NCBI RefSeq assembly: GCF_028640845.1
Contig: NC_080548.1
Coordinates: forward strand, 17,295,321 to 17,359,320
Origin: Ahaetulla prasina
Lineage: Eukaryota; Chordata; Lepidosauria; Squamata; Colubridae
Length of the DNA: 64,000 bases
Direction of reading: 5' to 3'
Position numbers and translations under genes: made by a program. The notes beneath the pieces were generated by a model that worked only from the letters and a program-made list of their open reading frames with translations, searched no databases and had not been told where the DNA came from. This document shows, in pieces, positions 3,045 to 58,876 of the stretch (the stretch's first letter is position 1; each line of letters starts with the position of its first letter).

Positions 3045-3411
3045 CTTTAGAAAATCTTCTGTGTCTTACTGAATTCAAGCAGCATAGGAAAGCTATGCAT
3101 TTTGTACTCATCTTTTTTCTCTTCCTTTCCCCCACCCCTTTTTAATCGATGTTTCATTAATTTTGATGTTGTTGTTGTTTTTATCTATTTTTTGTACTAT
3201 ATAACAGTCAGTCTAAGCCCGTAATAAAGCTTATGTTAATGCTGGCCTGCAACATATTTGTTTTGAAAGCCAGCATAAGTATTTTATTTTAAATCTGGTC
3301 TTAACTTCTGTTTAACTCGCATATGAGGGAAATGATCAGAGCATATGAGCATTTGGTTCATAGCTGCGTGACTGAAGCAGACAAAATCTCATTTGTTTGG
3401 TCAGTTTAGAC
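3045..3411. other. Unique non-coding DNA
   Basis: AT-rich. Contains an imperfect inverted repeat (CTTATGTTAATGCTGGC / GCCAGCATAAG) near 3230-3280. No gene seen. Confidence 0.5.
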
Positions 3412-4179
3412 CAGGGGTCTCCAACCTTTCGGACCTCAGGGACCACTAAATTCATAATTTTAAATCTCACAGACCACTAATATGATCTGCCTAATGACCA
3501 GCTGGGTGGGCGTGGCTAGTTAGTCATGTGACTGGATGGGCGTGGTCAACTCGATGTCACTCACATTAAGGGGCGCCTCACCGGCCTCTACTCGCCCCTC
3601 CCCTCCCAGCCCTGCCTTGCCTGCCCACCCGGGCTCCTTAGGGCCCCAACAGGAAGCAGTTGTTTGAGCTAAGGAGCCACCACGAGAAAGAGTTGGCAAA
3701 ACAGCTGGCTCAGTTCAAATTGGATCTGACCAAGAAGGAGGCTCAGCAGAAGCACCTCACTGAGGACTAGGAGCATAGGCTTTCCAAGCAGAGGGGAGAC
3801 CTGCGGGAGTGCAAGGCCAGGTACCGGCACCTGGAGGCTCAGCAAGCTGAGAGGGTCAGCCAATTCCAGGCCATGATGCAGCCCCACTGGAACAAGGCCC
3901 TCTGGCTCTTTGCCACCAGCGTTGCTTCCCTCCAGCCTTCCCCCAAAGCCCCAACCCAAGTCGGAATTTCTGCCCCCCTCTGACCCACACAAAAAGACCC
4001 CATAGGGGGAGATTCTCTGCAGCAAAACAAACGTTCATTTCATGTTTCTGTCCCAGGGGCTTTAGTTTGAGGACCCCTGATTTAGTGCAATATAAAAAAT
4101 GCAAATAATATTTCGGCGGACCACCAAAATGTTCTCACGGACCACCAGTGGTCCACGGACCACCTGTTGGTAACCGCTG
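3412..4179 (+). mobile_element. hAT-type element carrying a coding-like segment, copy 1
   Basis: Ends CAGGGGTCTCCAACC and AACCGCTG, flanked by the exact 8-bp duplication GTTTAGAC (3404-3411 and 4180-4187). The outer parts hold the GGACCACTAAATTCATA and GTGGTCCACGGACCAC blocks shared with 14305-15060, 17565-18055 and 37256-37646. The middle carries the coiled-coil segment annotated separately. No transposase is present, so it depends on enzymes from elsewhere. Confidence 0.9.
3657..3983 (+). pseudogene. Captured coiled-coil coding segment inside hAT, copy 1
   Basis: Frame from CAG at 3657 to TGA at 3981-3983, 109 codons with one internal TAG (3768-3770). The translation begins with HEKELAKQLAQF-like heptads rich in Lys, Glu, Gln and Leu, typical of a coiled coil. 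It then has SKQRGDLRECKARYRHLEAQ and a tail with HWNKALWLFATS. It resembles an exon of a coiled-coil host protein, but I do not recognise the gene. The same segment, differently broken, is in two other copies of this element. Stop codons make it non-functional; capture by the transposon is inference. Confidence 0.6.
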
Positions 4180-4339
4180 GTTTAGACAACCCTGATCAAA
4201 TTAAGACAATTGAGGAGGGTTGGTCCATCACAAGATGCTGTCTGCCTCAAAGGGTAACCGCAGAAATACATTACGTTTTATATAAAAATAGTCCTTGACA
4301 GTTTGTACAACGACCATTCCAAGTCAATGGAACAAATGA

Positions 4340-6163: not shown

Positions 6164-6392
6164 TTTCTTTCTTTCTTTCTTTCTCTCTCTCTCTCTCTCT
6201 CCTTCTTCCCTCCCTCCCTCTTTTTCTTTCAGTCTTTCTCTTTCTTTCTTTTCTTCCTCTCCTTCCTTCCTTCCTTTCTCTCTCTTCCCTTTCTTCCTCC
6301 CTCCATCCATCCCTCCCTCTTTCTTTCTTTCTTTCTCTCTCTCCTTCCTTCCTTCCTTCCTTCTTCTTTCCTTCTCTCTCTTTTTCTCATAT
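6109..6392. repeat. Polypyrimidine tract, (TTTC)n and derivatives
   Basis: About 280 bases nearly free of purines on this strand, starting with a clean (CTTT)n run and then CT, CCTT and CCAT variants. Open frames here encode only Ser/Phe/Leu and are artefacts. Confidence 0.95.
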
Positions 6393-14304: not shown

Positions 14305-15060
14305 CAGGGGTCCCCAACCTTTCAGACCTCAGGGACCACTAAATTCATAATTTTAAATCCCATGGACCACTAATATGATCTGCCTAATGACTGGGTGGGT
14401 GGGTGTGGCAAGGTGGCCACGTGACTGAGTGGGCATGGCCAACTCGATGTCACTCACGTCGAGGGGTGCCTTGCTGGCCTCTACTCACTACTCCTTGCCT
14501 GCCCACCCGGGTTCCTTAGGGCCCCAGTAGGAGCTAAGAACTAAACACCCACCACGAGAAAGAGTTGGCAAAACAGCTGGCTTAGTTTAAATTGGATCTG
14601 ACCAAGAAGGAGGCTCAGCAGAAGCACCTCAATTAGGACTACGAGCATAAGCTTTCCAAGCAGAGGAAAGACCTGCGGGAGTGCAAGGCCAGGTACCGGC
14701 ACCTGGAGGCTCAGCGGGCTGAGATGGTCAGCCAGTCCCAGGCCAAGATGTAATTCCACTGGAACAAGGCCCTCTGGCTCTTTGCCACCAGCGGCTCTTC
14801 CTTCCAGCCTTTGCCCAAAACTCCACATCAGGAGGCTGAAGCAGACCCCAAGTCGGAATTTCTCTCCCCCTCCGACCCACACAAAAAGGCCCCAAAGGGG
14901 GAGACTCTCTGTAGCAACACAAACATTCATTGCACGTATTCGTCTCAGGGGCTGTAGTTTGAGGACCCCTGATTTAGCAATATAAAAAAATCCAAATAAT
15001 TTTTTTGCAAACCATCAAAAGACCACCAGTGGTCCACAGACCACTAGTTGGTGACCGCTG
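14305..15060 (+). mobile_element. hAT-type element carrying a coding-like segment, copy 2
   Basis: Ends CAGGGGTCCCCAACC and GGTGACCGCTG. Flanks GTCTAAAC (14297-14304) and GTCTAAGC (15061-15068) match at 7 of 8 bases. Colinear with 3412-4179 over its whole length. Confidence 0.9.
14553..14895 (+). pseudogene. Captured coiled-coil coding segment, copy 2
   Basis: Same frame as 3657-3983: HEKELAKQLA at the start, then SKQRKDLRECKARYRHLEAQ, and a longer tail with HQEAEADPKSEF. It has different stops from copy 1 (TAG after the first ten codons, TAG after the LTKKEAQQKHL block, and TAA after the QAKM block). The shared frame with independent stops suggests one ancestral open segment. Host gene not recognised. 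Confidence 0.6.
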
Positions 15061-16681: not shown

Positions 16682-16956
16682 CAGGAGTGAAATCCAGCAG
16701 GTTCTGATAGGTTCTGGAGAACTGGTAGCGGAAATTTTGAGCAGTTCGGAGATATATACCACCTCTGGCTGGCCCCAGAGTGAGGTGGGAATGGAGATTT
16801 TGCAATATCCTTCCCCTGGAGTGGGGTGGGAATGGAGATTTTGCAGTATCCTTCCCCTGCCACGCCCACCAAGCCACACCATGCCCACCAAGCCACGCCC
16901 ACCAATTAAGGACCGCCCACAGAACCGGTAGGGAAAATTTTTAGATTTCACCCCTG
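16682..16956. mobile_element. hAT MITE, ACCGG family
   Basis: Ends CAGGAGTGAAATCC and GATTTCACCCCTG, interior GGTAGCGGAAATTTTGAGC and two GGAGTGGGGTGGGAATGG units in tandem. The 8-bp flanks do not match well, so one side may have been lost. Confidence 0.8.
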
Positions 16957-17564: not shown

Positions 17565-18055
17565 TTGGAAACAGCTGGATCTGACCGAGAAGGAGGCTCA
17601 GCAGAAGCACCTCACTGAGGACTAGGAGCATAGGCTTTCCAAGCAGAGGGAAGACCTGTGGGAGTGCAAGGCCAGGTACTGGCGTCTGGAGGCTCAGTGG
17701 GCTGAGATGGTCAGCCAGTTCCAGGCCATGATGCTTTCCCATTGGAACGAAGCCCTCTAGCTCTTTGCCACCAGTGGCTTTTCCCTCCAGCCTTTGCCCC
17801 AAACCCTGCACCAGGAGGCTGAAGCAGACCCCAAGTCAGAATTTCTGCCCTCCTTCGACCCGCACAAAAAGACCCAGAAGGGAGAGACTCTCTGCAGCAA
17901 TGCAAACATTCATAGCAGGTATCCGTTCCAGGGTCCATAGTTTGAGGACCCCTGATTTAATGCAATATAAAAAAATGTGAATAATTTTTCTGCGGACCGC
18001 CAAAATATACCTGCGGACCACCAGTGGTCCATGGACCTCCAGTTGGTGACCGCTG
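17565..18055 (+). mobile_element. hAT-type element carrying a coding-like segment, copy 3 (left-truncated)
   Basis: Starts within the captured segment (AACAGCTGGATCTGACCGAG). It continues through AAGACCTGTGGGAGTGCAAG and the CAGTGGTCCATGGACCTCC block, to GACCGCTG. The left third, with its end and target duplication, is missing. The segment again has internal stops (TAG after the TED block, TAG after NEAL). Confidence 0.85.
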
Positions 18056-31658: not shown

Positions 31659-32164
31659 CGGGGTGAAATGCTCCCGGTTCGGACCGGATTGCCCGATCCG
31701 GTAGCGATGGCGTGCGGGTGGTTCAGAAAATCAGTAGCAAAAATCCCTGCCCCCCTCATGCCCAGCTGAGCTGCATGATCATCAGAGGTGTTTTTTTTTT
31801 TTACTTTTAAATCCATTTTTTCTTTGGCTGAAAAAATGCTTTTAAAAGTAAAAAAAAAGCCTCTGATGATCGCGCGACTCAGCTGGGATCAACAGAGGCT
31901 TTTAAAAGCATTTTTTCTACAACCTCTTTGGCCTAAGAGGTTGTTAAAAATGCTTTTAAAAGCTTCTGACGATCCCAGCTTAGTTGCCTGATCGTCAGAG
32001 GCTTTTAAAAGCATTTTTTGCAACGTCTTTGGCCGAAGAGGTTGTAGAAAAAAAGCTTTTAAAAGTAAAAAAAAAGTTGGCCTCGCCCACCCAGTCACAT
32101 TACACCGCCCCCACCAAGCCACGCCCACAGAAGCAGTAGTAACAAATTTTACATTTCACTGCTA
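31659..32164. mobile_element. hAT MITE, ACCGG family, long form with inverted modules
   Basis: Starts CGGGGTGAAATGCTCCCGG and ends ACATTTCACTGCTA. Flanks ATCTGGGC and ATTTGGGC match at 7 of 8. The interior has alternating inverted modules built on CTTTTAAAAGCATTTTTT, CAACCTCTTTGGCC and GATGATCCCAGCTGAG. Confidence 0.87.
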
Positions 32165-36660: not shown

Positions 36661-37255
36661 CCTCCACACACACACCCCGCACATGCTGTTCTATTTACCC
36701 CATGCCTTCTTTTGGTGTGCACTGTGCGTGCGCACCTTGCCTTTGGTGAGTGGTGCGTACTGTGCATTGGGAAGCATTGGGGAATTATATTATCTGATGC
36801 AGCTCAGAAAGCAACCGAGACACGGAACTGCATCTCCTGAGGTTTGTTTCTTTGAATTGAAACCTTCCAGCTCAGTTCAGGAGAAGCATCATTGATCGCG
36901 TGAACGATAACGATGACATAACACCTTCACTGCCCTCAAAGACTACAGATCCAGGAGACTGGTGATGGTTATGCTAATCTAATCTTTTCGCAATATACAC
37001 TCAGAAATGACATTTCATTTATGCGTCTAACATACGTTGTTTCCACAAGGAATTTCTTAAATAGATTTTTTTTTTCATTCTGCACACTCCTGATTCTGTG
37101 AAATAGCTATATATTTCTCTATTTCTCCTTGCCAAGACAAGAGACGCTGATGAAATTGTCACATGTTGTTGAATAAATTGTCCGTGAAACTCTTGATGTT
37201 ATATTAGAGATTAGAGAATGGACTTGCAATATTATTTGCAAGCCATTCTCTAACC
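36661..37255. other. Unique non-coding DNA
   Basis: No repeat recognised. Contains a small inverted pair (AGAGAATGGACTTGCAA / TTGCAAGCCATTCTCT) at 37212-37251. Confidence 0.5.
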
Positions 37256-37646
37256 CAGTGGTCACCAACTTTTTTGACCTCAAGGACCACTAAATTCATA
37301 ATTTTCAATCCCGCGGACCACTCATATGATCTGCCTAATGACCGACTGGGTGGGCGTGGCTAAGTGGTCATGTGACTGGGTGGGCATGGCCAACTCCATG
37401 ACATTTATGTCAAGGGGCACCTCGCCAGCCTCTACTCGCCCCTCCCTTCCCAGCCACTCCTCATCTGCCCGCTCGGGCTCCTTAGGTAGCAGTTGTTGGA
37501 GCTAAGCAGCCACCATGAGAAAGAATCCATAGTTTGAGGACTCCTGATTTAGTGCAATATAAAAAATGCAAGTAATTTTTCTGAGGACCACCAAAATTTT
37601 CTCGCGGGCCATCAGTGGTCCACGGACCAGCAGTTGGTGACCGCTG
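37256..37646 (+). mobile_element. hAT-type element, deletion derivative without the coding segment
   Basis: 391 bp, flanked by the exact 8-bp duplication CTCTAACC. Same outer parts as 3412-4179, but CACCATGAGAAAGAA jumps directly to TCCATAGTTTGAGGAC, removing nearly all of the coiled-coil segment. It retains both edges of the segment, so it derives from the long form. Confidence 0.92.
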
Positions 37647-38077
37647 CTCTAACCTACACGTTTTTCATCTGGTCTGAGAAAGCATACAAGATGTCAAACT
37701 GGATTAGAAAGAGAAGGGGGCTAAAATTAGACTCCCTCCTTCCCTTCATCCTTACCTCTTTCTCTAGGGTTCATAAAAGCGGGCTATTTTTGCCCCCTTG
37801 GCTTCCAGAGTCTTGGAGGAATGAATGGATTTTATGCAAAGCTTTTGCTTTTAGACATGAAACATTCCAGATCCCACACAGAAGCCAAAAACTGTGTAAC
37901 TGCAGTGAAAATAAAAATGAAGCAAGCAGCAGAAGATAGCAATATGACCAAGTTCTTTAAAAAAAAAAGGAAATATGTGTTTTTGTAATATTGCTGATGA
38001 TTGATCATAAATAAAGAAAAGGAACATGCAACTTCATTACATATACTAAATGAAGTAATGTATGTTCAGATCAGAAT
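37647..38077. other. Unique non-coding DNA
   Basis: A 101-residue frame (37634-37939) starts inside the hAT end and has no recognised domain; not called. Confidence 0.45.
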
Positions 38078-47040: not shown

Positions 47041-47176
47041 GAAGTGGTTGTAGAAAAAATGCTTTTAAAAGATTTTTTTTTTAAAAGGTGGCCACGCCCA
47101 CCCAGTCACATTACCCACCACCACCAAGCCACGCCCACAGAACCAGTAGTAACAAATTTTACATTTCACCCCTGTT
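47041..47176. mobile_element. hAT MITE, ACCGG family long form, right part
   Basis: GTGGTTGTAGAAAAAATGCT, CCACGCCCACAGAACCAGTA, ending ACATTTCACCCCTG. The left part is missing where it joins the CR1 tail. Confidence 0.75.
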
Positions 47177-57753: not shown

Positions 57754-58876
57754 TGTAGAAAGTTAGCACCCACCCCTCTGCTAGGAAAATGAGATATTTT
57801 AGGAAATATTAAAAGGGCAGAATATTTCCCCTAAAAGGGAGGCAGAAACTCAGCCCCCCTCTCACCTTTGTCAATGGGCCATTGAGGCCTTCTACATAAC
57901 AAAGATCTACCTCCTTCAGGCAGAGCCATAATAGGAATACCAAAGCCCCTTTCATTACAGCATCACCCAGCAAGGCTCAACCAAGCCTGGGACTCAAAAG
58001 CACAGCCTACAAAGTTACCCCTGCATGGCCCCATGGGACCAATCAGAATACAAGCTCAAATTCAAAAGCCCAGAGAGGGTATAAAACCCAGGCACTCTCA
58101 GCATCTCTTGCCTTTTTGCCCCAGGACCTCAAACCATGTGGTCCCGTCCACCATTAAAAACCAACTTTCCAAGCCGTCTCCATGTTTCCAGTGTCTTTCT
58201 TCCCCACTTGGAACTGAACCAGTGGTGAAAAGTAAAATTTCTTACAAAATTTGTGGGGGTGGCTTGGTGTGGGTGGTAATGTGACTGGGTGGACGTGGCC
58301 AACTTTTTTTTTTTTTACTTTTAAAAGCATTTTTTCTACAACCTCTTAAGCCAAAAAATTGCTATTAAAAGGCTCCTCTGATGATCCCAGCTGAGCTGTA
58401 TGATCATCAGAGGCTTTTTTTTTTTACTCTTAAAAGCAGTTTTTCTGCAGTTTTTCGGCAGAAGAAAAAATGCTTTTAAAAGTAAAAAAAAAAACCTTTG
58501 ATGATCGCACTGCTCAGCTGGGCATGGTAGGGGGGCAAGGATTTTTGCTACCAATTCTCCGAACCACCAGCCACCAGGTTGTAGAAAAAATGCTTTTAAA
58601 AGGCTCCTCTGACGATCCCAGCTGAGCTGTATGATCATCAGAGGCTTTTTTTTTTACTCTTAAAAGCAGTTTTTCGGCAGAAGAAAAAATGCTTTTAAAA
58701 GTAAAAAAAAAAAACCTTTGATGATCGCACTTCTCAGCTGGGCATGGGGGGGGGCAAGGATTTTTGCTACCAATTCTCCGAACCACCCGCCGCCATCGCT
58801 ACTGGATCGGGTGATCCGATCCGAACCGGGAGCACTTCATCCCTGAACTGAACCCAGATGGACATTCCTTCCAACA
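57754..58876 (+). mobile_element. Solo LTR, family B, split by a hAT
   Basis: Starts TGTAGAAAG, ends CCTTCCAACA, flanked by GGAC on both sides. Without the hAT it is about 490 bp. Control signals are in LTR order: GACCAATCAGAAT (CCAAT) at about 58037, GGGTATAAAACCC (TATA) at about 58077, and ATTAAA near 58153. No gag, pol or env lies beside it. Reversed fragment at 23293-23545. Confidence 0.88.
58220..58845. mobile_element. hAT MITE, ACCGG family, long form with internal tandem duplication
   Basis: CAGTGGTGAAAAG to GGAGCACTTCATCCCTG, flanked by the exact 8-bp duplication AACTGAAC. A module of about 225-230 bp is present twice (about 58371-58580 and 58602-58800), each with inverted GATGATCCCAGCTGAG / CTCAGCTGGG words. 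Confidence 0.95.

What the first reader, a model, noticed from the sequence alone, without database searches (positions are those of the whole stretch)
3412..4179. hAT element that carries a coiled-coil gene fragment, in at least three copies
The segment at 3657-3983 reads as a coiled-coil protein in one frame, and the same frame recurs at 14553-14895 and in the copy at 17565-18055 with different stop codons. All sit between the same hAT outer sequences, and two copies have 8-bp target duplications. This fits capture of a host exon by a non-autonomous hAT before amplification. I do not recognise the donor gene. If it is a host gene, antisense or paralogous transcripts could affect it.
Basis: partly seen in the sequence, partly recalled or inferred. 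Interest (0 to 1): 0.8.

Follow-up and report, generated by a model that had tools for sequence, protein, structure and literature searches.

The report
Mobile element carrying spliced gene copy
A small cut-and-paste DNA transposon in a snake genome carries a piece of the centrobin gene copied from its spliced messenger RNA and has spread that piece to many places, a kind of capture that the animal survey we read had filtered out.

Summary
The segment is real and the donor is identified. The window (in a 1.77-Gb genome) holds four copies of a non-autonomous hAT element (ends CAGGGGTC..GACCGCTG, 8-bp target duplications). The coiled-coil frame is centrobin (CNTROB): the best of 66 database hits (387 candidates) are snake centrobins at 85-90%. 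In this genome the donor gene lies on contig C4. The captured ~400 bp match three separate CNTROB exons, joined exactly at their exon-exon junctions, while the gene keeps GT-AG introns of 1,903 and 2,444 bp. So the cargo is RNA-derived (processed), not a genomic exon. Five loci hold a longer form that runs further into CNTROB and on to its last exon and, by eye, its 3' UTR. This favours a processed retrocopy that came to lie in a hAT element, was trimmed and amplified. First-look candidates number 4,399 (DNA) and 9,296 (protein); the 40 and 150 scored (lists overlap) all passed. One 196-bp relative lacks the insert. A tree puts the captured frame beside colubrid and elapid centrobins, apart from vipers. 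Copies picked by DNA lie near neutrality. Closest known kind: Pack-TIRs; the survey read found four multicopy cases and discarded intronless captures. How the cDNA entered is inferred; use as an exon elsewhere is unproven.

The parts
3404..3411 (+). left target duplication GTTTAGAC of copy 1
   Evidence: identical to 4180-4187
3412..3486 (+). copy 1: hAT left arm (consensus 1-75), shared with the 196-bp segment-less relative
3487..3648 (+). copy 1: GC-rich stretch between left arm and captured piece; consensus 86-140 resembles the sub-terminal part of another hAT-like family in this window
3649..3778 (+). copy 1: CNTROB exon A in sense (126 bp from 3653) plus ACAG shared with the preceding mRNA
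3779..4025 (+). copy 1: CNTROB exon B joined directly to exon A, then the first part of exon C; a 20-bp deletion of this copy removes the B|C junction
4054..4079 (-). copy 1: inner hAT-like terminus CAGGGGTCCTCAAACTA.. in reverse orientation
4080..4179 (+). copy 1: hAT right arm ending GTAACCGCTG
4180..4187 (+). right target duplication GTTTAGAC of copy 1
14305..15060 (+). copy 2, flanks GTCTAAAC/GTCTAAGC (7/8)
17576..18055 (+). copy 3, lacks the left arm and about the first 68 bp of exon A; captured piece about 17576-17885, right arm to 18055
37256..37646 (+). copy 4, inner deletion from within exon A to the inner terminus; flanks CTCTAACC 8/8 at 37248-37255 and 37647-37654

Best explanation
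A short non-autonomous hAT element took up a piece of a processed (spliced, reverse-transcribed) copy of centrobin mRNA in a snake ancestor, after its lineage split from vipers, and the composite was amplified by transposition. Order proposed: (1) a hAT MITE of about 196 bp existed without the segment; (2) CNTROB mRNA was reverse transcribed, most likely by a host LINE, into a retrocopy that keeps exons A, B, part of C and, after a jump, the last exon and 3' UTR; (3) that retrocopy came to lie next to the hAT left arm (longer form); (4) a trimmed 788-bp form, whose 3' junction is a second hAT-like terminus, spread; (5) copies then decayed. Shown: a segment-less member exists (one copy), the cargo is spliced, many copies with their own target duplications exist, and they carry stops and CpG decay. 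Inferred: the order of the forms, who reverse transcribed the mRNA, and whether it entered by insertion, by capture at a repaired gap or by template switching.
For: Donor: in a search scored on the captured frame alone, 66 of 387 candidates pass; the best are centrobins of Pantherophis 86%, Notechis 90%, Erythrolamprus 85%, Pseudonaja 87%, then vipers 79-82%, python/boa 75-76%, lizards 54-75%, turtles 54-63%. Gene in this genome: 32 candidates scored, 10 matches, all on C4:3088377-3110242. The segment matches L065 1531-1660 (93%), 3561-3744 (93%) and 6186-6279 (84%), with GT-AG introns between. The joined exons align to the element ancestor in one block across both junctions; 60 of 60 aligned copies (near-duplicates included, copy 4 not) have at most 3 gaps within 12 bp of junction A|B, and 51 of 59 at B|C, the other 8 having a gap there. 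All five long-form loci align to the spliced mRNA in one block; L071 goes on with C-terminal codons (12 of 17 residues, E 4e-4; donor exon at L072 1791-1812). 3' UTR: 26 of 31 bases by eye between L067 and L072. Segment-less relative: left arm 93%, right arm 93%, flanks 5/8. Tree of 26: element with colubrid and elapid centrobins and one V2R model, apart from vipers, 98/96, own branch 0. Amplification: 40 of 40 and 150 of 150 scored candidates pass, of 4,399 and 9,296 first-look candidates; the two lists overlap.
Against: No poly-A or LINE-type target duplication was looked for. The 5' limit of the captured piece sits within 4 bases of an exon boundary, which a genomic capture would also give on that side (the intron's last three bases CAG also fit), though further upstream the element does not match the intron's T-rich tail (by eye). 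The segment-less relative is one copy and could be a deletion product with 21 bp of filler. First-look numbers are candidates, not verified copies. The tree rests on 136 columns and a midpoint root.
Confidence: 0.84

Rival explanations
1. Genomic capture: the element copied an exon of centrobin directly from chromosomal DNA.
For: The 5' limit lies at an exon start, and CAG before it fits the intron end.
Against: Two introns of 1,903 and 2,444 bp are absent exactly at GT-AG sites; the intron tail upstream of exon A is not in the element (by eye).
Confidence: 0.03
2. Direct use of cDNA or RNA as template: while a gap left by hAT excision was repaired, synthesis switched onto centrobin cDNA and onto pieces of other hAT elements, without any retrocopy having been inserted first.
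For: The insert is a patchwork: a piece like another hAT family (E 1e-8 to 1e-7), spliced CNTROB, an inverted hAT-like terminus. No separate CNTROB retrocopy was seen: all 10 N-terminal matches and 6 of 11 C-terminal matches are the gene itself, the other 5 are long-form carriers.
Against: The long form carries the 3' end of the mRNA after a jump, as retrocopies often do; an old retrocopy may simply have been lost or decayed below detection.
Confidence: 0.25
3. The carried segment works: it encodes a centrobin fragment, regulates CNTROB, or serves as a mobile exon spliced into other genes.
For: The inferred ancestral frame is open. Six of 66 database hits are V2R26-like gene models of Pituophis that include the segment and two are Ophiophagus models. 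Synonymous changes exceed expectation in all 57 copies (terminal branches 284 against 230.9 +- 11.8; inner branches 30 against 23.1 +- 3.9) and in a first set of 11 copies picked by DNA or from the window (55 against 43.5 +- 5.3 at non-CpG sites).
Against: The excess in the 57 comes mostly from copies picked by protein similarity; in 28 copies picked by DNA, terminal branches give synonymous 107 against 96.3 +- 7.6, non-synonymous 195 against 209.2 +- 7.8, stops 20 against 16.5 +- 3.7. 37 of 60 copies have TAG at one codon. The six V2R models start the segment at different points, as unsupported gene predictions might. The first in-frame Met of the inferred frame is near residue 67.
Confidence: 0.1

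Closest known systems
Pack-TIRs of animals, e.g. Pack-hAT-N8_XT of the western clawed frog (Tan et al. 2021, PMC8277862; abstract, section 7 and passages read)
   Same: TIR element, own target duplications, host sequence between the arms, multicopy by transposition; hAT is the commonest superfamily there (208 of 370)
   Different: Captured sequence here is spliced across two junctions; that survey discarded intronless captures of multi-exon parents. Its multicopy cases were four, the example having three copies; here the first look gives thousands of candidates
ARF6 in MER20 (same paper, passage)
   Same: retrogene sequence inside a MER20 transposon
   Different: the passage allows a separate retroposition event instead and does not speak of amplification
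Turmoil-1 of C. elegans (PMC2572040, abstract read)
   Same: transduplication of host coding sequence by an animal transposable element
   Different: captured into the inverted repeats of another element; worm, not vertebrate
Gene-capturing Helitrons of bats (seen only as references and a sentence in PMC8277862; otherwise recalled)
   Same: vertebrate DNA transposons that carry and multiply host gene pieces
   Different: rolling-circle elements, not TIR elements with 8-bp target duplications

Membership tests
hAT superfamily (non-autonomous member) | 8-bp target site duplications | tested here: met
   11 of 17 full-length copies 8/8, 4 7/8, 2 6/8; of 6 more, 4 8/8, 1 7/8, 1 6/8; window copies 1, 2, 4
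hAT superfamily (non-autonomous member) | short terminal inverted repeats beginning CAG | tested here: met
   consensus starts CAGGGGTC, ends GACCGCTG
hAT superfamily (non-autonomous member) | mobilised by a hAT transposase with matching ends | not tested
   no autonomous partner was searched for; the genome search answered 4 times only
Pack-TIR | host gene sequence between the ends of a TIR element, parental locus elsewhere | tested here: met
   CNTROB on C4; element copies elsewhere
Pack-TIR | captured piece not an intronless copy of a multi-exon parent (filter of PMC8277862) | tested here: not met
   two introns precisely missing; by that survey's rule it would be discarded
Processed retrocopy (as source of the insert) | introns removed exactly at splice sites | tested here: met
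Processed retrocopy (as source of the insert) | contains the 3' end of the mRNA | tested here: inconclusive
   long form has C-terminal codons and, by eye, 3' UTR, but after a jump that skips several exons
Processed retrocopy (as source of the insert) | poly-A tract and LINE-type target duplication | not tested
   ends of the long form were not determined

The most novel reading that the evidence does not exclude
RNA-derived host coding sequence passed from a retrocopy into a cut-and-paste DNA transposon and was multiplied through thousands of loci, supplying a mobile exon with its own splice sites that has been taken into other genes, such as a V2R receptor cluster in a colubrid; this relay from RNA to DNA transposon is a route of exon shuffling that the survey read here filtered out.
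Probability: 0.2. Interest if true: 0.9.

Novelty: new variant of a known kind. Interest (0 to 1): 0.77.

Why it matters
It links two processes usually kept apart: reverse transcription of a host mRNA and amplification by a cut-and-paste DNA transposon. It shows that a filter used to find gene captures by TIR elements (drop intronless captures) can remove a real class. The captured frame is a datable snapshot of centrobin from a snake ancestor, and its copies may mislead gene annotation, as the V2R models of Pituophis suggest. The questions it opens (how the cDNA got in, whether the exon is used) can be tested with existing snake genomes and RNA-seq.

Tried and rejected
Pfam (six families at E up to 1, none above its cut-off) and PDB sequences (best a coiled-coil chain, E 0.002) did not name the donor. 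The 139-residue frame alone found no protein at E 0.001 (2 candidates), full-length proteins being outside the length range of that search. Rfam on the window: no match at the gathering score. A first idea that the element held an intron tail of CNTROB (genomic capture) was dropped after the gene was read. A first reading of the synonymous excess as selection was dropped once copies picked by DNA were separated, though some excess remains in small sets. An isoform of Erythrolamprus that skips part of the segment hinted at an intron but proved nothing. The listings of paper searches show no report of a CNTROB-bearing or spliced-mRNA-bearing amplified hAT; a snake repeat review (PMC8303610, passages) has no word beginning with captur; passages of PMC3620055 on rat centrobin were not used further.

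Full report
What is there. The window is G000:C10:17295321-17359320 of a 1.77-Gb assembly in 745 contigs. It holds four copies of one hAT element: 3412-4179, 14305-15060, 17576-18055 (no left arm) and 37256-37646 (inner deletion). A consensus of 40 aligned copies is 788 bp with ends CAGGGGTC..GACCGCTG. Of 17 full-length copies, 11 have perfect 8-bp flanking duplications, 4 have 7/8 and 2 have 6/8; 16 of the 17 contain TAG or TAA in the middle. Of 6 more, 4 have 8/8, 1 has 7/8 and 1 has 6/8.

The frame. The coiled-coil frame is shared by the segment-bearing copies. One codon is TAG in 21 of the first 40 copies, TAT in 10 and TAC in 9; with 20 further copies picked by DNA the counts are 37, 12 and 11 of 60. 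TAC is followed by G, so TAT looks like CpG decay and the frame was probably open in the founder; TAG marks a large sub-lineage (inference).

The donor. Alone, the frame finds nothing telling in Pfam, PDB or the protein set within its length range. I recognised a resemblance to human centrobin from memory and tested it. The element frame matches rat centrobin 477-578 at 47% over 104 residues. A search scored on the captured frame alone, inside a centrobin carrier so that full-length proteins were admitted, gave 66 hits of 387 candidates: colubrid and elapid centrobins at 85-90%, vipers 79-82%, python and boa 75-76%, lizards 54-75%, turtles 54-63%. In a tree of 26 sequences the element frame falls with colubrid and elapid centrobins and a V2R model, apart from vipers (98/96), on a branch of length 0. 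The frame therefore looks like centrobin as it was in a snake ancestor after the viper split.

Spliced. The gene is on contig C4 of the same genome. All 10 matches (32 candidates scored) to residues 1-503 of the Pantherophis protein lie at 3088377-3110242. The exon before the captured piece ends at L064 245 with CACAG|GTGGGA. The captured piece then matches three places in L065: exon A 1534-1659, exon B 3563-3743 and the first part of exon C from 6188, with GT-AG introns of 1,903 and 2,444 bp. The joined exons align with the element in one block over about 400 bp, including four bases (ACAG) of the preceding mRNA. Of 60 aligned copies, 60 cross the first junction; of 59 with letters on both sides, 51 cross the second and 8 have a gap there. 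Copy 1 of the window is one of the 8. Donor and element ancestor differ by dS 0.30 and dN 0.04 over 132 codons, as expected if the gene was held by selection. Introns missing exactly at their splice sites mean an RNA intermediate.

Longer form. A query from the C-terminal part of centrobin gave 11 matches: six stretches of the gene itself and five other places that match only its first 34-39 residues. Those five loci (L067-L071) carry the same spliced piece but run about 92 bases further into exon C. L069 and L071 align to the element consensus from base 1, L067 from base 29, L070 from base 80 and L068 from base 89; no right arm was found in the stretches fetched. At the end of the exon C part the sequence jumps to C-terminal codons of the last exon: L071 KSHTPVKMGK-VSGSLA against KSHAPGKTGKKLSGSLA, E 4e-4, and the donor exon lies at L072 1791-1812. 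The long forms are 77-85% alike over about 600 bases or more. That suggests greater age than the 788-bp form, but the 788-bp copies fetched were those closest to the queries.

Without the segment. L059 holds a 196-bp relative with both arms (93% each), 21 bp between them and flanks that agree at 5 of 8 bases. It is one copy. By comparison with it, the insert of the 788-bp form is consensus 76-688. The insert is a patchwork: bases 86-140 resemble the sub-terminal part of another hAT-like family found at 47086-47147, 58257-58304, 32075-32128 and 16859-16903, then spliced CNTROB, then an inverted hAT-like terminus.

Number. The genome search took 4,399 (DNA) and 9,296 (protein) first-look candidates and scored 40 and 150; all passed, and some places are in both lists. 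These are scored lower bounds and unverified candidates; the true number is not known. All 38 loci fetched by these two searches contain this element.

Selection. Across 57 copies (three near-identical ones dropped, CpG sites and the TAG codon left out) synonymous changes are in excess (terminal 284 against 230.9 +- 11.8; inner 30 against 23.1 +- 3.9). That set includes 29 copies picked by protein similarity, which favours silent changes. In 28 copies picked by DNA, terminal branches give synonymous 107 against 96.3 +- 7.6, non-synonymous 195 against 209.2 +- 7.8 and stops 20 against 16.5 +- 3.7; inner branches give synonymous 16 against 12.1 +- 2.7. A smaller set of 11 gave 55 against 43.5 +- 5.3. 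I read this as near neutral, without excluding weak early constraint.

Use by other genes. Six of the 66 hits are V2R26-like models of Pituophis with receptor domains, and two are Ophiophagus models. In the six, the segment follows the same receptor sequence but begins at different points, so they may be annotation artefacts.

Known and new. Tan et al. 2021 found 370 Pack-TIRs in 100 animals, 208 of them hAT, only four multicopy, and discarded intronless captures of multi-exon parents (PMC8277862: abstract, section 7 and passages). They also mention a retrogene in MER20 that may be a separate event. I therefore call this a new variant of a known kind: a multicopy Pack-hAT with RNA-derived cargo.

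Limits.

Noticed in passing
47086-47147 (-), 58257-58304 (+), 32075-32128 (-), 16859-16903 (-): Copies of another hAT-like family (starts CAGKGGTGAAAT by eye, GTGGGCGTGGC repeats) that shares a sub-terminal piece with the insert.
   Followed up: partly
2910, 13082, 13200, 26467, 47426, 47543: Pattern matches (up to 4 mismatches) to CAGGGGTC-type hAT ends on both strands, possibly related families.
   Followed up: no
Pituophis V2R26-like proteins P0128, P0158, P0171, P0176, P0177, P0186; Ophiophagus P0155, P0185: Predicted proteins of other snakes that contain the transposon-borne centrobin piece.
   Followed up: partly
L050 about 370-500: A hAT-like terminus CAGGGGCCCTCAAACTA.. with GGCCCGCGGGTCGGATACGGCCC after a simple repeat; may be the source family of the inner terminus.
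   Followed up: no
L004/L006 (G000:C8:11649278-11654148): Two closely similar copies about 1.5 kb apart, perhaps a local duplication.
   Followed up: no
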